Source of the DNA: a virus
Virus record (IMG/VR): IMGVR_UViG_3300036770_006698
Location: 1-56,448 of that record
DNA: 56,448 nucleotides
Reading direction: 5' to 3' (one strand)
Under the pieces are notes generated by a model that did not search any database, had not been told where the DNA came from, and saw nothing but the letters and a program-made list of their open reading frames with translations. The position numbers and the translations under genes were made by a program. Below are positions 7,133 to 43,149 of this stretch, piece after piece. Position 1 is the stretch's first letter, and each line of letters starts with the position of its first letter.

Positions 7133-8500
7133 ATGAAAAAAATAGTAATTGTAGGAGCAGGAGTAGCAGGTGTAAATGCAGCAACAAAACTTGTTGATAA
7201 CGGTTATCCTGGTGAAATGATCACTGTAATTGATATGGGTAAAGATCCATACCAACGTAAACCTGAAGAAGTAATGACAGGTTTCTTAGGTGCTGGAGGT
7301 TGGTCTGATGGTAAATTGACTTATCACACAGCAATTGGAGGTCAACTATCAAAATATTGTGGTGAGGAAAAAGCAATGGAATTGATGGATCAAGTCATTA
7401 CCAATTTCAAACGTTTCCACCCTAAACCAGAAGAAGTACAATGTTCAAATCCTGAAGCAGAACCTGAATTTATCAAACCCTATTTTGGTTTACGCTTATT
7501 CCCAGTATGGCACGTAGGTACAGATTATCTATCTGAAATTGCTAAAAATTGGTATGATTATTTAGTTGAAAAAGGTGTAAAGTTTATTTGGGAAACTAAA
7601 GTAACTGATGTTAATTTTAATAAAAATTCATTAGGTTATTCTTCTTTACCTGTTAAACTAGGAAAAATTAAATCTTTAATATATGATGAACTTATATTTG
7701 CAGTAGGTAAATCAGGCATTGATTTTGCTCAAGAGCTAGCCCACCAATACGAACTCCCAGATGAACCCAAATCAGTACAAATTGGAGTTCGATTTGAAGC
7801 ACCACAAAAACACTTTCAAAAACTAATCGATATTTCATATGACTTTAAGTTATATAGAAAATTTGAAGATGAAGGAGTTTCATTACGTTCATTCTGTACA
7901 AATAATAATGCTGCTTATGTTGCTGTAGAGGAAACATATGGTGATCATTCATATAATGGACATGCTAAGAAAGACGAAGCATATAGAAATAATATGACTA
8001 ATTTCGGTATCTTAATGGAAATTAATGGTATTGAAGATCCGTTTAAATGGTCACGTGATGTAGTAAATAAAGTACAAGCAAATGGTACTGGTTTATATTA
8101 TAGTCCATCTCGTCAACCATCAACTACATCTGAAGGTAATGGTGTAACAGCAACTCAAATTAGTTTAGATACATTAGCTCATGTTGTTGAACCTGCTATG
8201 GAAGGTTACTTTAAATATGTTATGGATTTTATTCAAGACATGAAAAAAGTATTCCCAACATTACAAGACGATTGGGGTATTTATATTCCTGAAGTAAAAT
8301 ATCTATCACCTGAAGTTAAAGTAGATTATAGTAATTTAGCATTAGCTGATTATGCAAATGTACACTTTGTAGGTGATGCTTTATCAGCACGAGGTATTAC
8401 AGTATCAGGAGCACAAGCAATTTATGTTTGTGAATCTATACTTGGAGAACATAAAAATGATTTGTATCTTTACGAACAAGGAACAGGAGATTTATTTTAA
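7133..8500 (+). CDS. FAD-dependent oxidoreductase
   Basis: The 455-residue protein has an N-terminal Rossmann dinucleotide site, KIVIVGAGVAGVNAATKL (G8, G10, G13), and a C-terminal FAD-contact motif, HFVGDALSARGITVSGAQAI, with G414-D415. The GG-WSDGKL segment near residue 58 and the overall size fit uncharacterised FAD-dependent dehydrogenases (COG2509-like). I see no signal peptide, so it should be cytoplasmic. Substrate is unknown. It opens a four-gene island flanked upstream by two terminators, and a weaker TATATTTAAA element lies at about 7103-7113. This is an unusual gene for a T4-like phage and looks like an auxiliary metabolic gene. Confidence 0.8.
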   Translation: MKKIVIVGAGVAGVNAATKLVDNGYPGEMITVIDMGKDPYQRKPEEVMTGFLGAGGWSDGKLTYHTAIGGQLSKYCGEEKAMELMDQVITNFKRFHPKPEEVQCSNPEAEPEFIKPYFGLRLFPVWHVGTDYLSEIAKNWYDYLVEKGVKFIWETKVTDVNFNKNSLGYSSLPVKLGKIKSLIYDELIFAVGKSGIDFAQELAHQYELPDEPKSVQIGVRFEAPQKHFQKLIDISYDFKLYRKFEDEGVSLRSFCTNNNAAYVAVEETYGDHSYNGHAKKDEAYRNNMTNFGILMEINGIEDPFKWSRDVVNKVQANGTGLYYSPSRQPSTTSEGNGVTATQISLDTLAHVVEPAMEGYFKYVMDFIQDMKKVFPTLQDDWGIYIPEVKYLSPEVKVDYSNLALADYANVHFVGDALSARGITVSGAQAIYVCESILGEHKNDLYLYEQGTGDLF

Positions 8501-28054: not shown

Positions 28055-31000
28055 ATGGCTCAAGTAAGATTTTTAGATCAAGTTCCCGTTGGTGTGTACC
28101 AAGTAAATTCTACCGATGGTAGTGGTACAATTGACATTTATCAAAATGGTACATTAGTTAGTGCTAGTGTACCTTTCCTAAATTTTTCAGGTTCAGTTGA
28201 ACTAACTACTTTTGATACTACAGGTGTTACAGTATATGTTTCTGGTTCAGGAGTAGGATTTCCTTTTTCAGGTTCAGCTGTTATTACTGGTTCTTTAGTA
28301 ATTTCAGGATCATCTCAACCAATTATACTTCAAACACTTCCTGTTCAAGATATAAATTATGTTGTAACTTATAACCCAACCACAGGTGTTGTAGGATATG
28401 TAAATACAACTTCAGGTACAAGTGGTTTTGCTGGTTCTTCAGGAACCACAGGACAGTCAGGAACAAGTGGTGCAAGTGGTACTTCTGGTACTTCAGGTTT
28501 AACTGGTTCTTCAGGTCAAACTGGTACATCCGGTACTTCAGGAATAGATGGTACTTCTGGCACTTCAGGTGATGCTGGCACTTCAGGCGAAAATGGTACA
28601 TCCGGTACTTCAGGAGAAAAGGGTACATCCGGTACTTCAGGAGAAAATGGTACATCCGGTACTTCAGGAGAAAATGGTACATCGGGAACAAGTGGTGAAG
28701 ATGGCACATCTGGTACTTCAGGGTTATCTGGTACTAGTGGTGAAATAGGTACAAATGGCACCTCAGGCGAAGACGGTACTTCAGGTACTTCAGGTTTAGC
28801 CGGAACAAGTGGATTAACAGGTACTTCAGGTACTTCAGGAATAAATGGTACTTCAGGTTCAACTGGTTCTTCAGGAACTTCAGGTCAAACAGGAACAAAT
28901 GGTACTTCTGGTGAAAATGGTACATCCGGTACGTCTGGTTTAGATGGTACCTCAGGTGAATCTGGTACTTCAGGAACAAGTGGTGAAGATGGCACATCCG
29001 GTACTTCAGGATTATCTGGTACTAGTGGTGAATCTGGTACTTCAGGTACTAGTGGTGAAGACGGAACTTCAGGTACTTCAGGTTTAAATAGTACCTCAGG
29101 TGAATCTGGTACTTCAGGAACAAGTGGCACAAGTGGTACAATAGGTAGTTCAGGTAGAACAGGACCTGGTGATCTTCCAGGTTCAGGAACAAGTGGAACT
29201 TCAGGAACTTCAGGAACATCCGGAACTTCAGGTGAAGACGGTACTTCAGGTAGTTCAGGTTTAGCTGGCACCTCAGGCGAAAATGGTACATCTGGTACTT
29301 CAGGTGAAGACGGTACATCAGGTATAAGTGGTACATCTGGTACAACTGGTTCTAATGGAATAAGTGGAGAAAACGGTTCTTCAGGAATTTCAGGCGAATC
29401 AGGAACTTCAGGTACAAATGGTTCAAATGGTATATCAGGTGAAAATGGAATAAATGGTACATCAGGTGTAAGTGGTACATCTGGTACAACTGGTTCTAAT
29501 GGAACCTCAGGTGAAAATGGCACCTTAGGAACTTCAGGTTTAGCAGGTACTAGTGGCACTACAGGAAGTAATGGAACTTCAGGTGAAAATGGTACTACAG
29601 GTACCTCAGGAATAAGTAGTGAATCCGGTTCAACAGGAACTTCTGGTACATCTGGTGAAGACGGTACTATCGGTTCTTCAGGTATCTCAGGTGTAAGTGG
29701 TTCAACTGGCACCTCAGGTAGTTCAGGAGCTAACGGTACTATAGGTACTTCAGGAATTTCAGGTAATTCTGGTTCCACAGGAACAAGTGGTACCTCTGGT
29801 GAAGATGGCACTACAGGTACCTCAGGAATTTCAGGTGAGTCTGGTTCTACAGGTTCATCAGGTATTTCAGGTGAAAGTGGTTCAAATGGTACTTCAGGTA
29901 TTTCAGGACAAAGTGGTTCAACTGGTACTGCTGGTACTTCTGGTGGATCAAGCACATCAGGTTCTTCAGGAACAAGTGGCGACTCAGGCACTTCAGGTGA
30001 AGCTGGAACTTCAGGTTTATCCGGTACTTCAGGTTCATCTGGTACTTCAGGTGAAGCTGGAACTTCAGGAAATAGTGAAACATCTGGTTCAAGCGGAACA
30101 TCAGGTACATTTGGTACTTCAGGTGAAGCTGGAACTTCAGGTGAAAGTGCTATCTCTGGTACTTCAGGTACATCAGGTTCAAATGGTTCTTCAGGAGAAG
30201 AAGGTACATCTGGTATTTCAGGTTTAAGTGGTACTAGTGGTTCAACAGGTACAAATGGTACTAGTGGTGATAATGGTTCAACAGGTACTTCAGGTACCTC
30301 AGGTGAGAATGGCTCAACAGGTACTTCAGGTATCTCAGGAAATTCTGGTTCAACTGGTTCAGCAGGTACTTCAGGTCAAAATGGTACTTTCGGTACTTCA
30401 GGTATTTCAGGTGAATCAGGAACAACTGGTTCTTCAGGAACAAGTGGTGAAGATGGTACCTCAGGTACTTCAGGTATTTCAGGTGAATCCGGAACAACAG
30501 GTACAAGTGGAACAAGTGGTGATAATGGTTCAACAGGCACTTCAGGTGTAAGTAGTACTAGTGGTTCAACAGGCACATCAGGTACTTCTGGTGAAAATGG
30601 AACCTCAGGTACTTCAGGAACAAGTGGAGAATCAGGTTCATCTGGTACTTCAGGAACAAGTGGAGAATCAGGTTCAACAGGCACTTCGGGTACTTCAGGA
30701 AATAGTGAAACGTCTGGTTCCTCAGGCACTTCAGGATCTAATGGTTCTAGTGGTAATGCTGGAACAAGTGGTTTAAGTAACACATCTGGTACTTCTGGTT
30801 CAACAGGTACAAATGGTTCTTCAGGAGATGCTGGAACAAGCGGATTATCAAACATAAGTGGCTCCTCAGGAACTACTGGATCTAATGGTACAAGTGGTAA
30901 TGCTGGTACTTCAGGAAATAGTGAAACGTCTGGTTCTTCAGGTACTTCTGGTACAAACGGTACAACAGGAGACTCTGGAACTTCAGGTGAAAGTGCTACT

Positions 31001-34000
31001 TCAGGTACGAGTGGTTCAACTGGTACAAACGGTACAACAGGAGACGCTGGAACTTCAGGTGAAAGTGCTACTTCAGGTACAAGCGGTTCTTCAGGAACTG
31101 TAGGTTCTACAGGAGATGCCGGAACTTCAGGTGTTTCAAACACAAGTGGTTCCTCAGGCACATCTGGTTCAAACGGTTCTTCAGGTGAAGCTGGAACAAG
31201 TGGATTATCTAATACAAGTGGTTCTTCAGGTACTTCTGGTACAAACGGTACAACAGGAGACGCTGGAACTTCAGGTGAAAGTGCTACTTCAGGTTCTTCA
31301 GGAACAAGTGGTTCAGTTGGTACCTCAGGTAATGCTGGAACAAGTGGATTAAGTACAACTTCTGGTTCAAGTGGTTCTTCTGGAACAAACGGTTCAACAG
31401 GAGTTGACGGTAACTCAGGTTTAAGCAGAACTTCAGGTTCATCTGGTTCTTCAGGTTCAACAGGAACTACAGGTTCTTCAGGTGTTGCTGGTGAATCAGG
31501 ATTAAGTAATACAAGTGGTACATCTGGGTCTTCAGGTTCAGTTGGTACTTCAGGAAATATAGGTACAAGTGGTTTAAGTAGAACTTCAGGTTCTAGTGGA
31601 ACAAGTGGTACAAATGGTACTTCCGGAGATGGAGATTTAGGAACTTCAGGTTTAAGTCGCAGTTCAGGTTCAAGCGGAACAAGCGGTACTAATGGTTCAA
31701 CAGGTAATGCTGGTACTTCAGGATTAAGTAATACATCAGGCACAAGTGGTTCTTCAGGTACAAACGGTTCAACAGGTGAAGCTGGAGATTCAGGTCAAAG
31801 TAAAATTTCAGGAACAAGTGGATCTTCAGGTTCAGTTGGTACCTCAGGTAATATAGGAACTTCAGGTTTAAGTCGCAGTTCAGGATCTTCAGGTACATCA
31901 GGTACAAACGGTACTTCCGGAGATGGAGATTTAGGAACAAGTGGATTAAGTAGAAGCTCAGGTTCAAGTGGTACCTCAGGAACTAATGGTTCAACAGGGG
32001 ATGCAGGTACTTCAGGTAATTCAAATACATCAGGATCTGCAGGTACAAGCGGTTCAAATGGTTCATCAGGAGCGGCTGGTACTTCAGGTATTAGTAATGT
32101 TTCTGGTTCATCAGGAAGTTCAGGTTCAAATGGTTCAACAGGTGCTGCTGGAACAAACGGATTAAGTCAATTATCAGGCACTTCAGGAAGTTCAGGTTCA
32201 AATGGTTCATCAGGTAATGCTGGAAATAGTGGTGCTAGCGCAACAAGTGGAACAAGTGGTTCTACAGGTACATCAGGTTCAGTAGGAGTTAGTGGTAATG
32301 CTGGAACATCAGGTGCAAGTAATACTTCAGGTTCATCAGGATCTACTGGTACAAATGGTACTTCAGGTGTAGCTGGAACTAGTGGATTATCAAATACAAG
32401 CGGTTCTTCAGGTTCAACAGGAACTTCAGGTTCTTCAGGAGCTGCAGGCGCTTCAGGAGCAAGTGCTACTTCAGGAACAAGTGGTTCTTCAGGTTCAACT
32501 GGTACTTCAGGTTCTTCAGGTGCTGCAGGTGCATCAGGTGCTAGCGCTACTTCAGGAACAAGTGGTTCAACTGGTACAAACGGTACCTCAGGTAACGTTG
32601 GAACAAGTGGATTAAGTCGTAGTTCAGGTTCATCAGGATCTTCGGGTTCAATAGGTACCTCAGGTAACGACGGTACTTCAGGATTAAGTAGAACTTCAGG
32701 TTCAAGCGGTTCAGCTGGTACAAACGGTACTTCAGGAAACGATGGTACTTCTGGTTCAAGTAGAACTTCAGGTTCATCTGGTACAAGTGGCTCTTCAGGA
32801 TCTACAGGTACAAACGGTACTTCAGGAAATGCAGGTACTTCAGGTGCTTCAAATACTTCTGGTTCTTCAGGTTCAACTGGTACTAACGGTTCAGCAGGAG
32901 TAGCAGGTACTAGTGGATTAAGTAATACATCAGGATCATCAGGTACAACAGGTTCAAATGGAACAAGTGGAAATGCCGGTACAAGTGGTGTTAGTGCTAA
33001 CTCAGGAACTTCCGGTTCAACGGGTACAGCAGGTACTACAGGAGCTGCTGGAACTAGTGGTTCATCAAATACAAGTGGTTCTTCAGGAACTACTGGTTCA
33101 AATGGAACAAGTGGTAATGCTGGAACAAGCGGATTAAGCCGTAGTTCAGGCTCATCCGGTTCTTCAGGTACAGTTGGTACCTCAGGTAATGATGGTACTT
33201 CTGGTTTAAGTAGAACATCTGGTTCTTCAGGTTCAACAGGTACTAATGGTAATTCGGGCAATGCCGGAACAAGTGGATTAAGTGCTACCTCTGGTTCTTC
33301 AGGATCAACAGGTACAGCAGGTACTACAGGTAATGCAGGTACGAGTGGTGTTAGTGCTAACTCAGGAACTTCAGGTACAACTGGTTCAAACGGTACTTCA
33401 GGAAACTCAGGTAATGCTGGAACAAGCGGATTATCAAACACAAGTGGTTCATCAGGTACAACAGGTTCAGTAGGTACATCAGGTGTTGCTGGTACTAGTG
33501 GTCCAAGTCAAACCTCAGGTACAAGTGGTTCATCTGGTACTAATGGCTCATCTGGTGATACTAGTAATTCAGGATTAAGCAGAACTTCAGGTTCTTCAGG
33601 TTCAACTGGTACAAACGGTACTTCAGGTAATTCAGGAAATGCCGGAACAAGTGGTGCTAGTGCAACTTCTGGTACATCAGGTTCAGCTGGTACATCAGGT
33701 ACCTCAGGTAATGCTGGAACAAGTGGTGCTAGTGCTAACTCAGGTACATCAGGTTCAGCTGGTACTGCAGGTACCTCAGGTAACACAGGAACAAGCGGTT
33801 TAAGTCGTACCTCAGGTTCATCAGGAACTACAGGTTCAAATGGTACTTCTGGAAATAACGGAACCTCAGGTAATTCAGGTAATTCAGGTACAAACGGAAC
33901 TACAGGTTCAAATGGTACTTCTGGAAATAATGGAAACAATGGCAACTCAGGATTATCAGGTACAAGCGGAACTACAGGTTCAAACGGTACCTCAGGTAAC

Positions 34001-36253
34001 TCAGGAAACGCGGGTACTTCAGGATTAAGTCGGACTTCAGGTTCAAGCGGAACTAATGGTTCAAATGGTACCTCCGGAAATAATGGTACTTCAGGAAACG
34101 CAGGTACTTCAGGATTAAGCCGCAGCTCAGGTTCATCCGGAACAACAGGTTCAAACGGTAACTCAGGTAACGCAGGTAACTCTGGTTTAAGTGCAACCTC
34201 AGGTTCAAGTGGAACCAATGGTTCCAATGGTAACTCAGGAAACGCGGGTACTTCAGGATTAAGTCGGACTTCAGGTTCAAGCGGAACTAATGGTTCAAAT
34301 GGTACCTCCGGAAATAATGGTACTTCAGGAAATGCAGGTACTTCAGGATTAAGCCGCAGCTCAGGTTCAAGCGGAACTACAGGATCTAATGGTACTTCAG
34401 GTAACGCAGGTAACTCAGGTAACGCAGGTACTTCTGGTCTAAGTGCAACTTCAGGTTCAAGTGGAACCAATGGTTCCAATGGTAACTCAGGAAACGCAGG
34501 TAATTCTGGCTTAAGTCAGACTTCAGGAACATCGGGTTCAAGCGGAACTAATGGTTCAAACGGTAACTCAGGAAACGCAGGTACTTCAGGATTAAGCCGC
34601 AGCTCAGGTTCAAGCGGAACAACAGGTTCAAACGGTAACTCTGGCAACTCAGGTAACTCAGGTACTTCTGGTTTAAGTGCAACCTCAGGTTCAAGCGGAA
34701 CAACAGGTTCTTCAGGTAACTCAGGTAACGCAGGTAACTCTGGTTTAAGTCGGACTTCAGGTTCATCAGGAACATCAGGTTCAAGCGGAACAACAGGTTC
34801 AAACGGTAACTCAGGTAACGCAGGTAACTCTGGTTTAAGCCGCAGCTCAGGTTCATCAGGAACCTCAGGTTCAAGCGGAACAACAGGTTCTTCAGGTAAC
34901 TCAGGAAATGCAGGTAATTCTGGTTTAAGTCGGACTTCAGGTTCATCAGGAACTTCAGGTTCATCAGGTTCTAATGGTACTTCAGGTAACTCTGGTAACT
35001 CAGGAAACGCAGGTACTTCAGGATTAAGCCGTAGTTCAGGTTCATCAGGAACTTCAGGTTCATCCGGAACAACAGGTTCTTCAGGTAACTCAGGAAACGC
35101 AGGTAATTCTGGCTTAAGTCGGACTTCAGGTTCATCAGGAACTTCAGGTTCATCAGGTTCTAATGGTACTTCAGGTAACTCTGGTAACTCAGGAAACGCA
35201 GGTACTTCAGGATTAAGCCGTAGCTCAGGTTCAAGCGGAACTAATGGTTCAAACGGTAACTCAGGAAACAACGGAGTTTCAGGTAACTCAGGTAACTCAG
35301 GTACAAGTGGTTCAAATGGTAGTTCAGGAAACTCAGGAAACAACGGTAACTCAGGAGCATCAGGAACTTCAGGTACAACTGGTTCTTCAGGTACAAATGG
35401 TGTTTCAGGAAACAAAGGTAATTCAGGTGTAAGTGCGCTTTCAGGTTCTTCAGGTTCATCAGGTTCTAATGGAACATCAGGAGCAAACGGAACTAATGGT
35501 ACAAGTGGTGTAGCGGGAACAAGTGGTCAATCAATCAACGGTACCTCAGGTATTAGTGGTGGTGTATTTACCAATCAACCAGATTATTTAGTAAGAACTA
35601 CAAGTACAACAACAGTACAAAGTGTATCATTCTTATATGCTGATATTACAAATACTAGATTAGGTGTTAATACTACAGGCCCAACACAAACATTAGATGT
35701 AAATGGTAGTGTATCATTTTCTGGAGAAAATGTCTTATGGTCTGATGCTGAAAATTATTTATGGGCAGGTGATACAGCTCTTTCAGGTACTACAATTACC
35801 GCTAAACTTTATCCAGGACATACATCTATATTAGATCCAAATCAAGCTGCAGTTTATGTTCAAGGAACAATACTTCATAGCCAAACCTCCGGAGAAGCAT
35901 TAACAGTTGGTCAATTAGTACATTACCAGGCTGCCTCAGGTCAATGGTTTAGAACAGATGCTGATGCACTTTCTACAACTGAATTTATATTAGGGGTAGT
36001 ATTAAGAACAGTTGCTGGAGTTGGAAACGAAATCTCAGTATTAATTGATGGTATATATACTACTAACTTAATAGATGGTGTAGCAACAATTGGTGATCCA
36101 CTTTATGTAGGAACAACTGCGGGTAATGTTAGTGCAACCGTACCAACAGCAGCAGGTTCTATTATAAGAGGAGTAGGAAACGTAATCAGACAAAATGGAG
36201 CCTACTATACAATAAACTTCAGACCTGATACAACTTATTTTACTAACGGATAA
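28055..36253 (+). CDS. Giant collagen-like fibre protein
   Basis: The protein has 2,732 residues, the largest here. Residues 1-120 form a beta-rich head with fibre-like strands ([13 protein letters not shown]). About residues 121-2503 are nearly unbroken Gly-X-Y triplets, mostly GTS, GSS, GEN, GLS, GNA and GNS, with almost no proline. Register breaks occur at PGDLPG near residue 373 and at two GDGDL units. The C-terminal 230 residues are a beta domain with [20 protein letters not shown] and [20 protein letters not shown], similar to phage fibre tips. It should trimerise into a fibre hundreds of nanometres long, likely on the tail or neck. Three glycosyltransferase genes follow, suggesting that its many Ser/Thr residues are glycosylated. 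Confidence 0.9.
33995..34369 (+). repeat. Recent 234-base duplication in the fibre gene
   Basis: The 141 bases from 33995 recur at 34229 (offset 234, or 78 codons) with one visible difference (AAACGCAGG against AAATGCAGG). Near identity including synonymous positions points to recent duplication or gene conversion. Confidence 0.75.
34860..35230 (+). repeat. Recent 189-base tandem duplication in the fibre gene
   Basis: Sequence from about 34860 to 35040 recurs at an offset of 189 bases (63 codons), from about 35049 to 35229, with only scattered single-base changes. The unit keeps the Gly-X-Y frame. Confidence 0.7.
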
Positions 36254-36284
36254 TACAACTTGGTACTTTAAATAATTTTACGTA

Positions 36285-36292
36285 TATTTATG
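36285..36292 (+). promoter_or_regulatory. Candidate late promoter element TATTTATG
   Basis: TATTTATG within CGTATATTTATGGGA in the 53-base gap before the first glycosyltransferase. It ends 14 bases before ATG 36307 and differs from the others in the last core base. Confidence 0.45.
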
Positions 36293-36306
36293 GGAAATAG
36301 ACTGTT

Positions 36307-38964
36307 ATGCAAAAATTGTTATTTATTGCCCCACATTTATCAACAGGCGGACTCCCACAATATTTAACCAAGAAGATAGAATTACTTAGAAATACTTACG
36401 AGATTTATCTTGTAGAATGGGTAGATTGTACTGGAGGCGTTTTAGTAATAACTAAAAATAAAATAGTTAATTTAGTTGATTCTGATAAATTTTTTACTCT
36501 TAAAGAAGATAAACAAGAATTAATTGATATTATTCATCATGTTAAACCGGATATTATTCATTTAGAAGAAATTCCTGAGTTTTTTATGGATGAAAATATT
36601 GCTAAACAAATTTATAATACGGAAAGAAATTATAAAATTGTAGAAACATCTCATGATTCATCTTTTGATACAAACAATAAAAAATTCTTCCCAGATAAAT
36701 TTATGTTTGTATCTCAATGGCAAATTAATCAGTATCAAGATATTAATGTTCCAAGCGTATTAGTTGAATATCCTATTGAATATATTGAACGCCCTGACCG
36801 TGAAGAGGCACTGCGTAATCTACAATTAGATCCCGCTAAAAAACATGTTTTACATGTAGGATTATATACTTCTCGTAAAAATCAAGCAGAATTTTTTGAA
36901 TATGCTAGACAATTTCCTGATGTAGAATTTCATAGTTTAGGAAATAGAGCAGATAATTTTAAATGGTATTGGGAACCATTAGCCAAAGATCAACCCTCAA
37001 ATTTAACATGGTGGAATGAACGCACAGATGTAGATAAGTTCTACCAGGCAATGGATTTATTTTTATTTACCTCCAGAGGTCATGAAAACGATAAAGAAAC
37101 AATGCCTTTAGTTATTCGTGAAGCAATTTCATATCAAATTCCTACATTAATATATAACCTTCCTGTTTATTTAGATTATTTTAATAAATTCCCTACTATT
37201 GATTATTTAAAATTTGATGATTTTAAAACTAATTATGACAAAATTGCTAAAAAATTAGGTATTAAAGAATCAAATTCAGATGAAGAAATATTTATCTTAT
37301 CTACTTTTCCAATAAGTGATGCTGTAATTGAAACCACATTAAAAACTATAGATTCAATTCAAGCTAGAGGAAATAAAGTTTTAGTTACATCACATATTCC
37401 TGTTCCATTTTCTATTGAAGCAAAAGCAGATTATGTTGTTGTAGATAACAATAATATTCTTACAAAACATACCTATTATAGTAATTATTGGGCAGATCAT
37501 CCTGATCATAAAGTTTATATTAATTTAAGAGGAAATAATAATGATATATATCATGGTCCTAGTGTTTATTCAAATTATGTAAATGGTGCTTCTTTAGCAA
37601 AAAGTTTAGGATATAAAAAATTATTTTTTCTTAATTTTGATTATACAATTCAATCATCTCATCATATAGATGAAATTTCTAAAATATTAGATAATAAAAA
37701 AGCATATTTTGGTAAATATAAAGCTTCCGAAGGTGATGCTTTACATACTTATTTTTGTGCAATTCATTCTGATTTCTTTTTTGATCATATTCATCAAATT
37801 TATAATGCTGAAGATTATGAACAACTTCGTTTTCAATTAGGAAGTGAAAGTAATGGTTTAGAAAATATGTGGTATCATATTTTTAAACGAAGTACTGATT
37901 ATATATATTTTGAAGATATTGAAATTTTTGATCAAAAAAGTTTAGAAACATTTGATCATTCTGATTTTTCCCAAGTAGAATATTACACAGTATTACCAAC
38001 TAATATTCCAAACTCATTTGCTCCTTATATTAGAATTTCTAATAGTAAAGAATCAAGATTTATTCGAGTTGTAATACGCGATAAAGATAAAAATGAAATA
38101 TTTTTTGATGAATTAAATGTAGAGGGTAAAACAGATTATTACAAAGTTTTTCGATATGAAGAAGGAATGGAAGTAGAATTTACCATAGGTAATTATCATA
38201 AAACTTTAAAAGTTATTACAATTCAAGTAACTAATTTAGAATTTAATGGAAAATTAGAAGTAAAACATTATATTCCTAAAATAAAATTAATGCATTTAGT
38301 TACTGAACCTGATTCTAATTCTAAAGAAATTAAATCAATAGAAAACATTAAGGATTTTTGTGAAAAAACAGATATAGTATACGAACAACGTATTAATGAA
38401 ATCTGGAAAGAACTCCCTCCAAAAGAAACATGTTCTCGCCCACAAGATGTTCAAGATAAACCAGGCTACTATAAATTAGCTCCTGGACATTATGGGTGCT
38501 ATTTAGCTCATAAAAATGCTTTATGTGCTGAAGATAATACTAAATATGATTTTGTATTAATTGTAGAAGGTGATGTTGTAATAGACAGTGATTATCAAGA
38601 ATTATATGAATCTTTGATTAGATTTAATAAATTATCATATCAAACTGATATGGATATTATAGGATTTGGTAATCCATGGCAGGATAGAAATTTAAATGGC
38701 CCTAAAATAGAAGACATTTATACAGATGTAACTCCTTTTATCCCAGCTCAATCGTATTTAATTAATAATGTTAAAATTAGAAAAATCAAGGTAATGCTAG
38801 AAACATTACCCTGGGATGCTATTGATTTATGGATATGTAATGTAGCTAGATTAAGAGTAGGTACAGCAGAAAAAATTTACACCAAACATCTCCCAGGATT
38901 TAGTATAGTAGAACAATCCAATAAAGATGGTAAAACAGATAATCCCTTAATATTTACAGAATAA
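36307..38964 (+). CDS. Three-domain glycosyltransferase with C-terminal GT25-like domain
   Basis: The 885-residue protein has three parts. Residues 1-330 are GT4/GT-B-like, with APHLSTGGLPQYLTKKIELL at the start, HVGLYTSRKNQAEFFEYARQ near 180 and IREAISYQIPTLIYN near 275. Residues 335-600 look GT-A-like (FILSTFPISDAVIETTLKTI, then YKKLFFLNFDYTI). About 655-885 resemble GT25: KLAPGHYGCYLAHKNAL, then FVLIVEGDVVI with the E754-G755-D756 acidic motif. Known GT25 members transfer galactose to lipooligosaccharide or to collagen hydroxylysine. Next to a giant collagen-like protein it probably builds a glycan on the fibre. The sugar is unknown. The stop overlaps the next ATG. Confidence 0.8.
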   Translation: MQKLLFIAPHLSTGGLPQYLTKKIELLRNTYEIYLVEWVDCTGGVLVITKNKIVNLVDSDKFFTLKEDKQELIDIIHHVKPDIIHLEEIPEFFMDENIAKQIYNTERNYKIVETSHDSSFDTNNKKFFPDKFMFVSQWQINQYQDINVPSVLVEYPIEYIERPDREEALRNLQLDPAKKHVLHVGLYTSRKNQAEFFEYARQFPDVEFHSLGNRADNFKWYWEPLAKDQPSNLTWWNERTDVDKFYQAMDLFLFTSRGHENDKETMPLVIREAISYQIPTLIYNLPVYLDYFNKFPTIDYLKFDDFKTNYDKIAKKLGIKESNSDEEIFILSTFPISDAVIETTLKTIDSIQARGNKVLVTSHIPVPFSIEAKADYVVVDNNNILTKHTYYSNYWADHPDHKVYINLRGNNNDIYHGPSVYSNYVNGASLAKSLGYKKLFFLNFDYTIQSSHHIDEISKILDNKKAYFGKYKASEGDALHTYFCAIHSDFFFDHIHQIYNAEDYEQLRFQLGSESNGLENMWYHIFKRSTDYIYFEDIEIFDQKSLETFDHSDFSQVEYYTVLPTNIPNSFAPYIRISNSKESRFIRVVIRDKDKNEIFFDELNVEGKTDYYKVFRYEEGMEVEFTIGNYHKTLKVITIQVTNLEFNGKLEVKHYIPKIKLMHLVTEPDSNSKEIKSIENIKDFCEKTDIVYEQRINEIWKELPPKETCSRPQDVQDKPGYYKLAPGHYGCYLAHKNALCAEDNTKYDFVLIVEGDVVIDSDYQELYESLIRFNKLSYQTDMDIIGFGNPWQDRNLNGPKIEDIYTDVTPFIPAQSYLINNVKIRKIKVMLETLPWDAIDLWICNVARLRVGTAEKIYTKHLPGFSIVEQSNKDGKTDNPLIFTE

Positions 38965-39923
38965 TGAAAATTTGCCAAATAGATCCTGGTTGTGGTATTC
39001 CTATTCCCCCTCCATCGTGGGGAGCTATTGAAAAAATTGTTTGGGAATTTACTCAAAATCTTACCAAATTAGATCATCAAGTTGATATTAAAATGTCAGG
39101 ACATATCCACCCAGGAGAATATGATATTGTACACTGTCATGTAGCAAATTTAGCTATTCAATTAGCTAAAAAAGGTATTCCTTATATATATCAAATTCAT
39201 GATCACCATGCTTATCATTATGGTAAAGAATCTCATGTTTATAAAGAAAATCTAAAAGCAATTGAAGGTTCTATTATAGCTTTAATGCCTGCCCGTTTTT
39301 TAGTTGATTATTTTGATCACCCTAAATGTATATATTTTTCTCATGGTGTAAATACTGATGATTTTTATCCTGTTGATAAACCAAAACCAATAAAACCAAA
39401 ACTATTAATGATAGCTAATAATGGATTAGCAGGAAATCAATCCTATGATAGAAAAGGTTTTACATACGGTTTAGGGTTAGCTATGTTAAATAATTTAGAA
39501 ATTACTATAGCTGGTCCTTCTGCTAATAAAAGTTTTTTTAATTCACATTTATGGATGTTAAATTATCCTAAATTAAATTTAGTATTCGATACTCATAATA
39601 ATGAATTATTAAATCTTTATCATCAACATGATATCTTTATTCACCCAACAATGTTAGAAGCAGGCCATCCTAATTTAACAATGGTTGAAGCAGCTGCAGC
39701 TGGTTTACCAATTATTGCTGATTGGGAACTAAATACAGATTTTCATGGTGCTTGGAGAGCTCCTAGAGATGTATTTGAAATGGATAAAGGTTTAAAAGAT
39801 ATTATGTCTAATTGGGAATCATATAGAGAAAAAGTTTTTAATACATCTCAAGAATTATCATGGTTTAATCGTTCAAAAGAATTAATAAAAATATATGAAA
39901 GAAGTTTTAATCAAGGAGTATAA
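38964..39923 (+). CDS. GT4-type glycosyltransferase
   Basis: The 319-residue protein has the GT-B pattern of retaining GT4 enzymes: KICQIDPGCGIPIPPPSWGA with IEKIVWEF, then HCHVANLAIQLA, a FSHGVNTDDFYPVD donor-domain linker near residue 131, and HPTMLEAGHPNLTMVEAAAA followed by GLPII. The usual E-x7-E donor motif is stretched here to E232-x9-E242. It should use a nucleotide-sugar donor in the cytoplasm. It overlaps the upstream gene by one base and the next by 29, so all three transferases are one unit. Confidence 0.85.
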   Translation: MKICQIDPGCGIPIPPPSWGAIEKIVWEFTQNLTKLDHQVDIKMSGHIHPGEYDIVHCHVANLAIQLAKKGIPYIYQIHDHHAYHYGKESHVYKENLKAIEGSIIALMPARFLVDYFDHPKCIYFSHGVNTDDFYPVDKPKPIKPKLLMIANNGLAGNQSYDRKGFTYGLGLAMLNNLEITIAGPSANKSFFNSHLWMLNYPKLNLVFDTHNNELLNLYHQHDIFIHPTMLEAGHPNLTMVEAAAAGLPIIADWELNTDFHGAWRAPRDVFEMDKGLKDIMSNWESYREKVFNTSQELSWFNRSKELIKIYERSFNQGV

Positions 39924-41091
39924 TAACATCTCTCAACTTAATTTACCTTATAAAAAAACTAGTAATACTTTTAATGTTCATTTTTTAAATGGAGCATTTT
40001 TAGAAATATTAGGTTCTGATTCAAAAAAATACTTAGTAAAATTCTTTGACCAACAAAAAAATCATCTGATATACGAATCAGAAATTTCTAATAATATGTG
40101 GACCAAACCAGGTATTGAATATTTTATTGATTGGAAAATAGAAGTTTATGATCTAGAGAACAATGAATTAGTATTTGAACATAAATTCGATGCTAAAGAT
40201 AAAAGAATCTATATCCATTTAGAATCCTCAGCTATTGGTGATACATTAGCATGGTTTCCATATATTGATGAATTTAGAAAAAAACATAAATGTCATGTAA
40301 TTTGTTCTACTTTTCACAATGAGTGGTTTGAAAAAGAATATCCTGAACTAGAATTTGTTACCCCCGGTACTGAAGTCCCAAAATTATATGCAATGTATAA
40401 TATTGGATGGTTTTATGATAATAAAGAAGTTGTTAAAACAAAAATACCAATAGATTTTAAACAACATCCTTTAGGGGAAACATCAACCTCAGTATTAGGT
40501 TTATCTTATACTGAAATAAAACCTAAAATTAATATTCCAAATAAAGCAAAACAAATCGAAGGTAAATATGTTGTCATAGCTCCTCATGCTTCGGCACATG
40601 CTAAATATTGGAACTATCCTGGTGGGTGGCAATCTGTTATTGATTATTTAAATGAAAAAGGTTATAAAGTAGTAATGATTACTCAAGAACGTTTAGGAGA
40701 TAAATGGCATGATTCTAAATTAGGGGGAACATTAAAAAATGTAATTGATAAAACAGGAAATTATACTATTGAAGATAGAATGGTAGATATAAATCATGCT
40801 GATGCTTTTATAGGTGTTGGAAGTGGATTATCATGGTTAGCTTGGTCTCTTAACACTCCTGTAATTTTAATCTCTGGATTTAGTTTACCTTATAGTGAAT
40901 TTACAGATTGTGAACGTATATTTAATTATGATACCAATATTTGTACAGGATGTTTTAATAAAGAATGGTTAAATCCTGGGGATTGGGAATGGTGTCCTAG
41001 CCATAAAAATACATCAAGACATTTTGAATGTACTAAATCAATTAAACCTGAAAAAGTGTTTGATTCTTTAAATAAAATTTTAAATTTTTAA
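39895..41091 (+). CDS. TibC-like protein O-heptosyltransferase (GT9-type)
   Basis: The 398-residue protein has an N-terminal beta domain (residues 15-100) and a GT-B domain: HLESSAIGDTLAWFPYIDEF, VVIAPHASAHAKYWNYPGGW, and VGSGLSWLAWSLNTPVILIS. Its C-terminus holds four cysteines in the order CTGC (C350, C353), WCP (C367) and FEC (C379), with the HK-x-x-x-R-x-FECTKSI context. That is the metal-binding signature of bacterial autotransporter heptosyltransferases (TibC/Aah group), which O-heptosylate serines of secreted repeat proteins using ADP-heptose. Here the likely acceptor is the Ser-rich collagen-like fibre encoded upstream. Recognition is good; the acceptor is inferred. Confidence 0.85.
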   Translation: MKEVLIKEYNNISQLNLPYKKTSNTFNVHFLNGAFLEILGSDSKKYLVKFFDQQKNHLIYESEISNNMWTKPGIEYFIDWKIEVYDLENNELVFEHKFDAKDKRIYIHLESSAIGDTLAWFPYIDEFRKKHKCHVICSTFHNEWFEKEYPELEFVTPGTEVPKLYAMYNIGWFYDNKEVVKTKIPIDFKQHPLGETSTSVLGLSYTEIKPKINIPNKAKQIEGKYVVIAPHASAHAKYWNYPGGWQSVIDYLNEKGYKVVMITQERLGDKWHDSKLGGTLKNVIDKTGNYTIEDRMVDINHADAFIGVGSGLSWLAWSLNTPVILISGFSLPYSEFTDCERIFNYDTNICTGCFNKEWLNPGDWEWCPSHKNTSRHFECTKSIKPEKVFDSLNKILNF

Positions 41092-41111: not shown

Positions 41112-41357
41112 ATGGATAAGTTTTTAACACCTGAAGAGTTATTATTAATAAATAATCTAAATAATCAACGAGAAAAAATAAAACATCAACTTGGTACTTT
41201 AGAGTATGAATTACAATTATTAAATCAAGAAAAAAATAAAGTAATTCAAGAGTTATATATTTTAGAAGAAAGTTTTGTTAAATTTGGCAAAGAAATACAA
41301 GAAAAATATGGTGAAGGAGTTTTAAACTTAAAAACAGGTAAAGTTACAAACAAGTAA
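41112..41357 (+). CDS. Small coiled-coil protein of unknown function
   Basis: The 81-residue protein is almost wholly one coiled coil (residues 8-65, LLLINNLNNQREKIKHQL, EYELQLLNQEKNKVIQEL), ending in GKEIQEKYGEGVLNLKTGKV. Small proteins with the same FGxEIQxKYGxGxxNxxTG end are common in aquatic phages and have no known role. It sits between the glycosylation genes and the tail sheath. Confidence 0.5.
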   Translation: MDKFLTPEELLLINNLNNQREKIKHQLGTLEYELQLLNQEKNKVIQELYILEESFVKFGKEIQEKYGEGVLNLKTGKVTNK

Positions 41358-41376
41358 TTTTTTAAAAACTTTAACA

Positions 41377-41384
41377 TATTTATA
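41377..41384 (+). promoter_or_regulatory. Candidate late promoter element TATTTATA
   Basis: TATTTATA in the gap before the tail sheath (ACATATTTATAACAAAA), ending 22 bases before ATG 41407. Confidence 0.65.
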
Positions 41385-41406
41385 ACAAAACAAAATAACT
41401 CATAAA

Positions 41407-43149
41407 ATGGCAGAAGCATTAATATCACCAGGTGTACTTGCAAGAGAAAATGATAACTCATTCGTTTCACAAGGACCTATTAGAAACAGCGCCGCAATTA
41501 TAGGCCCTACAGTATTAGGTCCTGTAGAATGGCCCCAAATTGTTACATCATATAGTGATTTTACAAACAAATTTGGATCTACTTTAATAGTTTCTAACGG
41601 AACCGGTAGTGGAAACACATATAGTTTCTTTACTTCTATTGCAGCATATAATTTCTTCGTTAATGGTGGCGAAACTTTACTTGTAACTAGAGTTGCTAGT
41701 GGATCATATTCCCCAGCAACTTCATCTTTCATTTCAGGTAGTACTGCCGGTGCAGTTGCTAGTGGTAGTGCATTTACTTTAACCACATTTTCTGAAGGTA
41801 CTATAATGAATAGTACAAGTACATTTGATGCTAGTGGATCTTTAGCAAGTGGTTCAATAAATAACATCAGATTCCAAATTGCAAATCCAAATACATCTTC
41901 TGGTACGTTTGATTTATACATTAGAAGAGGAGATGATAATACAGCTAATCCAATTGTATTAGAAACTTGGACTGGTTTATCTTTAGACCCTACAGCTCCA
42001 AACTTCCTTTCTAGAGTAATTGGTGATACTTATGAAGAATTAGATACTACTAACAATCAAATGGTTTCTTATGGTACATACAGAAATAATTCACGATATG
42101 TTTATGTATCTAGTATTAATCCTTACTTTTTAACACCTAATTATTTCGATAATAATGGTAATCCAAAAGCAGCATATACTCCTTTTATTCCTGCATCTAA
42201 CCCAAGTGGATCATTTGGATCTGCTGTAGGTACTATTACTGGAAGTGCTAATTTTTATCAAAATATTAATGGTACAAATACTCAAGGATTAGTAGCAAAC
42301 AATTATACATCCTCAGTAGCTTTAATGTCTAACCAAGATGCTTACCAATTTAATGTATTAGCAATTCCTGGTTTATATAATTCTGATGCTAATTATAATT
42401 CTGTTATCACCAATGTTATTAATAATACTCAAAACAGAGGTGATAATATTTTTGTAATGGATTTAGTACCTTATAGCTCAAGTGTAAACACAGTATCTGT
42501 TCAAGCAAATCAAAGAAATACTTCATATGCAGCCTCATATTGGCCATGGGTTCAAACAATTGACCCAGATTTAGGTCAATTAGTATGGGTTCCAGCATCA
42601 ACTATGATTCCAGGTGTTTATGCTTTTAATGATACAGTATCTGAACCTTGGTTTGCTCCTGCTGGTATTAACAGAGGTGGATTATCTCAAGTAGTTAAAG
42701 CAGAACTTAAATTAACTCAAACACAACGCGATACTTTATATTCTAATAAAGTTAATCCAATTGCAACATTCCCAGCAAACGGAGTTGTAGTATACGGTCA
42801 GAAAACATTACAAACAAAAGCATCAGCTCTTGATCGTGTAAATGTTCGTAGATTATTAATTGCTCTTAAGAATTTTATTTCAGAAGTAGCTCAAAATTTA
42901 GTATTCGAACAAAATACTATTGCTACTAGAAATGCATTTTTAGCAGCTGTAAATCCTTACTTAGAAACAGTACAACAACGTCAAGGTTTGTTTGCTTTTA
43001 AAGTAATTATGGATGATTCAAATAATCCTGCAGATGTAATTGATAGAAACCAAATGGTTGGTCAAATTTATCTTCAACCTACTAAAACTGCAGAATTCAT
43101 TTACTTAGATTTTAACATTTTACCAACAGGAGCTACTTTCCCAGCGTAA
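41407..43149 (+). CDS. gp18: Contractile tail sheath protein (T4 gp18-like)
   Basis: The 580-residue protein starts AEALISPGVLARENDNSF, the usual sheath N-terminus (xxSPGVxxxExD), and continues GPIRNSAAIIGPTVLGPVEW. The C-terminal sheath domain reads GVVVYGQKTLQTKASALDRV, NVRRLLIALKNFISEVAQNL, and VFEQNTIATRNAF. That pattern is conserved in gp18 and other contractile systems. A Ser/Thr-rich beta insertion (residues 105-155) probably faces outward. It forms the sheath around the tail tube and drives injection. Confidence 0.95.
   Translation: MAEALISPGVLARENDNSFVSQGPIRNSAAIIGPTVLGPVEWPQIVTSYSDFTNKFGSTLIVSNGTGSGNTYSFFTSIAAYNFFVNGGETLLVTRVASGSYSPATSSFISGSTAGAVASGSAFTLTTFSEGTIMNSTSTFDASGSLASGSINNIRFQIANPNTSSGTFDLYIRRGDDNTANPIVLETWTGLSLDPTAPNFLSRVIGDTYEELDTTNNQMVSYGTYRNNSRYVYVSSINPYFLTPNYFDNNGNPKAAYTPFIPASNPSGSFGSAVGTITGSANFYQNINGTNTQGLVANNYTSSVALMSNQDAYQFNVLAIPGLYNSDANYNSVITNVINNTQNRGDNIFVMDLVPYSSSVNTVSVQANQRNTSYAASYWPWVQTIDPDLGQLVWVPASTMIPGVYAFNDTVSEPWFAPAGINRGGLSQVVKAELKLTQTQRDTLYSNKVNPIATFPANGVVVYGQKTLQTKASALDRVNVRRLLIALKNFISEVAQNLVFEQNTIATRNAFLAAVNPYLETVQQRQGLFAFKVIMDDSNNPADVIDRNQMVGQIYLQPTKTAEFIYLDFNILPTGATFPA

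What the first reader, a model, noticed from the sequence alone, without database searches (positions are those of the whole stretch)
28055..41091. Candidate phage-encoded O-glycosylation system for a giant collagen-like fibre
Seen: a 2,732-residue Gly-X-Y protein very rich in Ser and Thr is followed, on the same strand and with overlapping genes, by three glycosyltransferase genes (about 4.8 kb). Known: GT25 includes collagen galactosyltransferases, and TibC-type enzymes O-heptosylate repeat proteins on Ser. Inference: the three enzymes modify the fibre, giving solubility, triple-helix stability without proline, protection from proteases, or receptor mimicry. I know of no described phage pathway with this combination.
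Basis: partly seen in the sequence, partly recalled or inferred. Interest (0 to 1): 0.9.

Follow-up and report, generated by a model that had tools for sequence, protein, structure and literature searches.

The report
Phage-encoded sugar-coating kit for giant fibre
A bacterial virus carries a giant Gly-Thr-Ser repeat fibre next to three sugar-transferring enzymes, one from a family known to attach sugars to serine in proteins; across many related viruses and some bacteria this enzyme and this repeat are found together, so the virus probably sugar-coats its own fibre.

Summary
ORF 28055-36253 is a 2,732-aa Gly-X-Y protein (745 Ser, 461 Thr, 16 Pro, 4 Lys), followed on the same strand by GTA (GT4-like + a second GT domain + GT25-like), GTB (GT4-like) and GTC. 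GTC belongs to the Aah/TibC protein O-heptosyltransferase family by sequence (TIGR04414, 327.6 bits, cut-off 200), and its catalytic Asp, Lys and Trp and four iron-finger Cys are invariant in 74 relatives. The window is a T4-like myovirus fragment.

In 29 dereplicated phage lineages with the whole slot visible, the Ser/Thr-rich Gly-repeat fibre and TibC are both present (14) or both absent (15), with at least 7 joint switches on a marker tree. Of 50 viral contigs chosen only by a (GTS)3 DNA motif, 24 encode TibC. In Methylomonadaceae, 8/8 phage-like TibC genes adjoin a secreted Ser-rich repeat protein (7 of them GTS-type), while classical TibC genes adjoin AIDA-like proteins.

Most likely TibC puts the first sugar on the repeat and GTA/GTB extend it. 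Donor sugar, triple helix and benefit are unproven, and about half of GTS-repeat contigs show no TibC. New variant of a known kind.

The parts
28055..28414 (+). Fibre N-terminal region (about 120 aa), shared with non-collagen fibres in the same gene slot of relatives
   Evidence: phmmer FIB_N hits in L127, L191-193, G014 and others; L120 fibre starts alike
28415..35644 (+). Ser/Thr-rich Gly-X-Y repeat region (X mostly Thr/Ser, Y mostly Ser; GTS commonest triplet), proposed acceptor
35645..36253 (+). Fibre C-terminal domain (202 aa), conserved in close relatives; some relatives end instead in a peptidase-S74-like intramolecular chaperone sequence (my recognition by eye)
   Evidence: AF2 model poor
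36307..37296 (+). GTA N-terminal GT4-type glycosyltransferase domain
   Evidence: PF00534 36.1 bits, above cut-off
37297..38286 (+). GTA middle region: predicted GT-A domain followed by beta strands
   Evidence: AF2 model pLDDT 83; Foldseek
38287..38964 (+). GTA C-terminal GT25-like domain, optional in relatives, fused to TibC instead in L102
38964..39923 (+). GTB, GT4-type glycosyltransferase (319 aa)
   Evidence: PF00534 E 1.2e-5, just below cut-off; phrog_33732 and phrog_2170 glycosyltransferase
39895..41091 (+). GTC, Aah/TibC-family O-glycosyltransferase (398 aa)
   Evidence: TIGR04414 327.6 bits vs cut-off 200; TibC 4RAP/4RB4 E 2.6e-58
40240..40242 (+). GTC catalytic base D116 (= TibC D110), 74/74 conserved; K237 (= K230) and W314 (= W305) also 74/74; R295 (= R286) 71/74
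   Evidence: residue roles from PMC4358343
40942..41031 (+). GTC iron-finger cysteines C350, C353, C367, C379 (= TibC C339, C342, C358, C370), 74/74 conserved
   Evidence: PMC4358343
27064..28017 (+). w27.0, conserved gene before the fibre slot; marker only, not part of the system
41112..43149 (+). w41.1 and tail sheath, which close the slot; present with or without the cassette, so not part of the system

Best explanation
The locus is a phage protein O-glycosylation cassette whose acceptor is the Ser/Thr-rich Gly-X-Y fibre made by the gene just upstream. GTC, a TibC-family enzyme, transfers a sugar from an ADP-sugar (ADP-heptose or similar, from the host) to Ser/Thr of the repeat in the infected cell, before the fibre is assembled onto the virion near the neck/tail. 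GTA (GT4 + GT-A + GT25-like) and GTB (GT4) then lengthen the glycan. Relatives add tailoring genes (FkbM methyltransferase, carbamoyltransferase, NDP-sugar epimerase, GT2-methyltransferase), so the glycan probably differs between phages. The result would be a bottle-brush-like glycoprotein fibre, useful for solubility, protease resistance, spacing, adhesion or shielding. Shown: enzyme family, intact active site, cassette co-inheritance. Inferred: the reaction, the order of enzymes, the sugar, the benefit.
For: Family and active site: TIGR04414 327.6/200 bits; TibC crystal sequence E 2.6e-58; D110, K230, W305 and 4 Cys invariant in 74. Forward association: every TibC-bearing T4-like contig whose slot is fully visible has a Gly-repeat gene with 42-63% Ser+Thr, even where the TibC-proximal collagen is Pro/Gln/Tyr-type. 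Matched absence: 15 dereplicated lineages with a non-collagen fibre in the same slot have no TibC; 14 vs 15, no discordance, Fisher p 1.3e-8, closest pairs 87-90% identical in w27.0; at least 7 joint switches. Reverse association: 24 of 50 contigs picked only by a (GTS)3 motif encode TibC, 15 of 24 within 6.2 kb, expected 6.9, p 2e-4; background 4 of 50,697 phage records. Bacteria: 8/8 phage-like TibC in Methylomonadaceae adjoin a secreted Ser-rich repeat protein, 7 GTS-type; 3 classical TibC adjoin AIDA-like proteins. Fusions GT4-TibC, TibC-GT25 and GT4-GT25.
Against: No biochemistry and no virion data. 26 of 50 (GTS)3-selected contigs show no TibC, including contigs of 91-219 kb, and several show no glycosyltransferase next to the repeat gene, so the repeat does not require TibC. 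L102 has TibC with no Gly-repeat gene in the 4.8 kb visible upstream (contig end); LR756504 has none within 20 kb. TibC's known substrate is a beta-solenoid, not a Gly-X-Y chain. The phages examined lack gmhA, so the donor is not settled, and the adenine-contacting Arg is lost in some distant fused forms. GTA and GTB have no direct link to protein acceptors.
Confidence: 0.8

Rival explanations
1. The three enzymes modify the host surface (LPS or capsule) to block superinfection, and sit beside the fibre gene because both belong to a hypervariable host-recognition island.
For: Glycosyltransferases in the host-recognition clusters of pelagimyophages were interpreted that way (PMC7029224). GTC belongs to the wider GT9 heptosyltransferase clan.
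Against: GTC falls in the protein O-heptosyltransferase equivalog, far above LPS heptosyltransferase models. The cassette follows the Gly-repeat fibre and is absent when another fibre occupies the same slot. Bacterial relatives pair with secreted GTS proteins.
Confidence: 0.1
2. TibC and partners glycosylate another virion protein (sheath, tube or a second fibre), not the Gly-repeat fibre.
For: The sheath gene lies right after the cassette in most T4-like relatives.
Against: Sheath and tube relatives occur without the cassette whenever the fibre is not Gly-repeat type. In other phages, a jumbo phage and bacteria the shared neighbour is the GTS repeat, not the sheath.
Confidence: 0.05
3. The cassette is linked to the fibre only by common horizontal transfer as one module, with no enzyme-substrate relation.
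For: Tail-fibre regions recombine as blocks; co-transfer alone would give concordant presence and absence.
Against: The pairing recurs with different gene orders, strands and partner genes (upstream, downstream, convergent, fused) and in bacterial chromosomes where only the two genes are shared. Active-site residues stay invariant.
Confidence: 0.05

Closest known systems
TibC / Aah bacterial autotransporter heptosyltransferases (BAHT), TIGR04414
   Same: Same enzyme family; same catalytic residues and iron finger
   Different: Known acceptors are AIDA-I/TibA-type autotransporters; here the partner is a Gly-Thr-Ser repeat fibre in phages, and the enzymes form a separate group from SLS-linked ones. 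TibC Pro-300, which sets heptose stereoselectivity, is Gly here
Mimivirus L230 (GLT25-like glucosyltransferase + lysyl hydroxylase) acting on viral collagen-like proteins
   Same: Virus-encoded enzyme modifying its own Gly-X-Y protein; GTA is structurally closest to COLGALT1; PMC9614988
   Different: L230 needs Lys and hydroxylates it; this fibre has 3 Lys in 2,410 repeat residues, so Ser/Thr would be the acceptor
[quoted passage not shown] cited in PMC9614988)
   Same: Gly-X-Y repeat rich in Thr carrying O-glycans
   Different: GPT repeat with Pro; rhamnose-based glycan; different glycosyltransferases; spore, not virus
Mycobacteriophage virion glycosylation (Freeman et al. 2023, as cited in PMC12619734)
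   Same: Phage-encoded glycosylation of virion proteins
   Different: Targets C-termini of capsid and tail tube proteins; no Gly-repeat fibre described there

Membership tests
Aah/TibC O-heptosyltransferase (BAHT, TIGR04414) | Scores above the curated equivalog cut-off | tested here: met
   327.6 vs 200 bits; also L258 311.5 and Mel-JY01 317.4
Aah/TibC O-heptosyltransferase (BAHT, TIGR04414) | Catalytic Asp-110, Lys-230, Trp-305, Arg-286 | tested here: met
   D, K, W 74/74; R 71/74
Aah/TibC O-heptosyltransferase (BAHT, TIGR04414) | Four-cysteine iron finger | tested here: met
   74/74 at all four positions
Aah/TibC O-heptosyltransferase (BAHT, TIGR04414) | Acceptor is a strand-loop-strand autotransporter encoded nearby | tested here: not met
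   Neighbour is a Gly-Thr-Ser repeat fibre; classical members in Methylomonadaceae do have AIDA-like neighbours
Aah/TibC O-heptosyltransferase (BAHT, TIGR04414) | ADP-heptose donor; dodecamer | not testable with these tools
   No gmhA in 25 long TibC-bearing contigs; host supply unknown
Collagen-like protein | Long Gly-X-Y repeat | tested here: met
   PF01391 E 1.3e-257, 32 stretches
Collagen-like protein | Pro/Hyp-rich X/Y, or another stabiliser of a triple helix | tested here: not met
   4 Pro and 3 Lys in 2,410 residues
Collagen-like protein | Forms a triple helix | not testable with these tools
   Needs CD melting or cryo-EM
GT25 / COLGALT (GTA C-terminal part) | PF01755 above cut-off and COLGALT-like fold | tested here: inconclusive
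   17.9 vs 24 bits; 15/25 relatives match at E <= 0.01; Foldseek best hit COLGALT1 E 4.9e-9 but TM-score 0.27
Phage virion glycosylation | Sugar on purified virion proteins | not testable with these tools
   Metagenome contig only

The most novel reading that the evidence does not exclude
A distinct branch of the TibC family, spread mainly by phages, has evolved to glycosylate Gly-Thr-Ser repeats, giving phages mucin-like glycoprotein fibres of up to 5,000 residues with more than a thousand potential sites. The collagen-like period would then serve as a scaffold for dense O-glycosylation rather than a true collagen helix, and some bacteria use the minimal two-gene version for a secreted protein.
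Probability: 0.6. Interest if true: 0.85.

Novelty: new variant of a known kind. Interest (0 to 1): 0.72.

Why it matters
Gly-Thr-Ser repeat fibres are widespread in uncultivated phages and usually go unexplained. If TibC-type enzymes decorate them, phages make heavily O-glycosylated fibres, a form of virion surface hardly described outside giant viruses and mycobacteriophages, with consequences for host adhesion, particle diffusion and shielding. It would also widen the known acceptors of the TibC family from autotransporters to a simple tripeptide repeat, a compact tool for protein O-glycosylation, and give a testable function to glycosyltransferases in phage genomes now assumed to alter LPS or DNA. 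My limited open-access searches found no paper describing an O-heptosyltransferase in a phage.

Tried and rejected
LPS modification as the main role: rejected as best explanation because the cassette follows the fibre type and GTC is in the protein-modifying equivalog. Hydroxylysine glycosylation as in mimivirus L230: rejected for the window because the repeat has 3 Lys. The sheath or w41.1 as part of the system: rejected, both occur without the cassette. Apparent exceptions L041, L046, L057 and L153 (collagens poor in Ser/Thr next to TibC): for L041, L046 and L153/L155, longer stretches showed an additional Ser/Thr-rich Gly-repeat gene further upstream; L057 was not extended. Phage-encoded ADP-heptose supply: no gmhA in 25 contigs and only one rfaE domain II above cut-off. 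Structure of the fibre C-terminal domain: model too poor to use (pLDDT 40), no fold search made. Long antisense ORFs inside the fibre gene (299-455 aa): judged by-products of repeat composition. Literature searches found no phage TibC and nothing on Mel-JY01.

Full report
OBSERVATION. The window is a 56,448-bp IMG/VR virus record of a T4-like contractile-tail phage: gp20-type portal, gp23-type major capsid protein, tail sheath, tail tube and baseplate hub. The fibre ORF at 28055-36253 encodes 2,732 aa. It scores E 1.3e-257 with Pfam Collagen, and its strict Gly-x-x score is 272 against a maximum of 12 in shuffles. Residues 121-2530 contain 717 Ser, 417 Thr, only 4 Pro and 3 Lys; GTS is the commonest triplet, X is mostly Thr or Ser and Y mostly Ser. 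After a 53-nt gap come GTA, GTB and GTC, overlapping each other by 1 and 29 nt.

ENZYMES. GTC scores 327.6 bits with the NCBIfam equivalog for Aah/TibC O-heptosyltransferases (cut-off 200) and matches the TibC crystal sequences over residues 44-395 at E 2.6e-58. From the TibC structure paper (PMC4358343) I took the residues that matter: catalytic base D110, K230, W305 and the adenine-contacting R286, plus cysteines 339, 342, 358 and 370 of the iron finger. In 74 distinct phage relatives D, K, W and all four Cys are invariant, and R is kept in 71. GTA has a GT4 domain above the Pfam cut-off, a middle domain, and a C-terminal part weakly like GT25 (17.9 bits, below the cut-off of 24; 15 of 25 relatives match at E <= 0.01). 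An AlphaFold2 model of residues 331-885 (pLDDT 83) has as its best PDB match the human collagen galactosyltransferase COLGALT1 (E 4.9e-9, probability 1.00). The TM-score is only 0.27 over the two-domain chain, so this supports a tandem GT-A architecture rather than a detailed likeness. GTB is GT4-like.

GENE NEIGHBOURHOOD. 274 IMG/VR stretches encode GTC relatives. The order fibre, GTA, GTB, GTC, w41.1, sheath, tube, hub is conserved across most of the 80 loci kept. To avoid selecting on GTC, I also collected relatives by the sheath and by w27.0, the gene just before the fibre. The slot between w27.0 and the sheath usually holds a fibre whose N-terminus is often recognisably related. When its body is a Ser/Thr-rich Gly repeat, the glycosyltransferases follow. 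When its body is of another type (for example the Ser-rich but non-Gly-repeat fibre of L120), TibC is absent. I then took the whole slot from long contigs. After dereplication there are 14 lineages with both and 15 with neither, none discordant (Fisher p 1.3e-8). Relatedness inflates that p-value, so the better measure is that on the w27.0 tree the joint state switches at least 7 times, with close pairs such as G014 and L211 (w27.0 90% identical) or L191 and L173 (87%) in opposite states.

APPARENT EXCEPTIONS. Some loci have TibC next to a collagen-like gene poor in Ser/Thr (GPQGYQG or GPRGPIG type: L041, L046, L153). Longer stretches showed that these phages also carry a 2,700-4,500-aa Ser/Thr-rich Gly-repeat gene in the same slot. 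The Ser/Thr-rich repeat is therefore the constant partner of TibC; the Pro-type collagens are extra and come with extra enzymes (GT2-methyltransferase, DUF6445, or a GT4-GT25-OGFOD2-like fusion). L057 belongs to this class but was not extended. Two cases remain open: L102, where only 4.8 kb upstream is visible, and the jumbo phage record LR756504, with no such gene within 20 kb.

REVERSE TEST. I searched viral contigs for a DNA motif encoding (GTS)3 without reference to TibC; 99 of the stretches carry a Ser/Thr-rich Gly-repeat ORF. Of 50 such contigs searched, 24 encode a TibC homolog. In 15 of these 24 the two lie within 6.2 kb, against 6.9 expected for random placement (p 2e-4), in various orders and orientations and often with TibC fused to other GT domains. 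In the phage collection as a whole only 4 of 50,697 records have a TibC relative. The other 26 contigs show no TibC, some of them 91-219 kb long, and several show no glycosyltransferase beside the repeat gene. The repeat can therefore exist without this enzyme.

OTHER PHAGES AND BACTERIA. Three of the four phage records with TibC have a GTS repeat nearby: the Microcystis phage Mel-JY01, and a 735-kb jumbo phage present as two records of the same length and match (only one of the two records was opened). In Methylomonadaceae, 8 chromosomal TibC homologs of the phage-like group (E < 1e-126) all adjoin a secreted Ser-rich repeat protein with a signal-peptide-like start; 7 have GTS-type Gly repeats, some almost pure (GTS)16-17, and the eighth (L474) has poly-Ser without the Gly period. 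Three more distant, classical TibC genes of the same bacterial family lie beside AIDA-like repeat proteins instead, and the tree separates the two enzyme groups. In these chromosomes TibC and the repeat protein are the shared elements, which suggests that TibC is the initiating enzyme, and that Ser/Thr rather than a collagen helix is what it needs.

MECHANISM. Best reading: TibC attaches a first sugar from an ADP-sugar to Ser/Thr of the repeat in the cytoplasm; GTA and GTB extend it; in relatives FkbM methyltransferases, carbamoyltransferases and epimerases vary the glycan. The donor is open: R286, which reads adenine, is kept in nearly all close relatives, but no gmhA was found in 25 long contigs, and TibC Pro-300, which sets heptose stereoselectivity, is Gly here (alignment). 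The fibre gene lies between neck genes and the sheath, so it may be a neck, collar or tail fibre; its place in the virion is not shown. Whether it forms a triple helix is doubtful without Pro, unless sugars stabilise it.

COMPARISON. The enzyme is a TibC-family member by sequence but not by its usual acceptor. The closest functional precedent is mimivirus L230, which hydroxylates and glucosylates Lys of viral collagen-like proteins (PMC9614988); this fibre has almost no Lys. Phage-encoded virion glycosylation is known in mycobacteriophages (cited in PMC12619734) but with other targets. I therefore rate it a new variant of a known kind, with strong genomic but no biochemical proof.

Noticed in passing
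L153:1379-3739 and contig G038 (L252-L253): A 786-aa protein fuses GT4, GT25-like and an OGFOD2-like (2-oxoglutarate dioxygenase) domain beside Pro-rich collagens (GPI/GPR/GPQ), recalling the mimivirus L230 fusion of collagen GT and hydroxylase.
   Followed up: partly
L258:8935-11137, L259:8947-11167, L472, L473, L475, L476, L477, L474: Chromosomal pairs in Methylomonadaceae: a secreted GTS-repeat (or poly-Ser) protein next to a phage-like TibC homolog, possibly a minimal protein O-glycosylation unit.
   Followed up: partly
L264:2-3052 (Microcystis phage Mel-JY01, PP395634.1): A 1,016-aa GTS-repeat reading frame on the + strand is not annotated as such; the record annotates a hypothetical CDS on the opposite strand (739-2298) and only the end of the + frame.
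   Followed up: no
L041, L046, L251 and related loci: Tyr/Gln/Thr/Pro-type collagens (GPQGYQG, GYT, GPT) occur in tandem after the Ser/Thr fibre, with a GT2-methyltransferase and a DUF6445 protein.
   Followed up: partly
L254 (G043), L248-L251 (G020, G045): Fibre genes of 13-15.5 kb encode Gly-repeat proteins of 4,333 to 5,170 aa.
   Followed up: no
L272, L280, L321, L330, L332: GTS-repeat giant proteins in other phages with no glycosyltransferase seen next to them; their modification, if any, is unexplained.
   Followed up: partly
L256, L257: Phage contigs with the cassette are binned in Winogradskyella and Flavobacteriales MAGs, a hint that Bacteroidota are hosts.
   Followed up: no
window 7133-8500: An NAD/FAD-type dehydrogenase-like protein (phrog_12409) of unknown role upstream of the terminase.
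   Followed up: no
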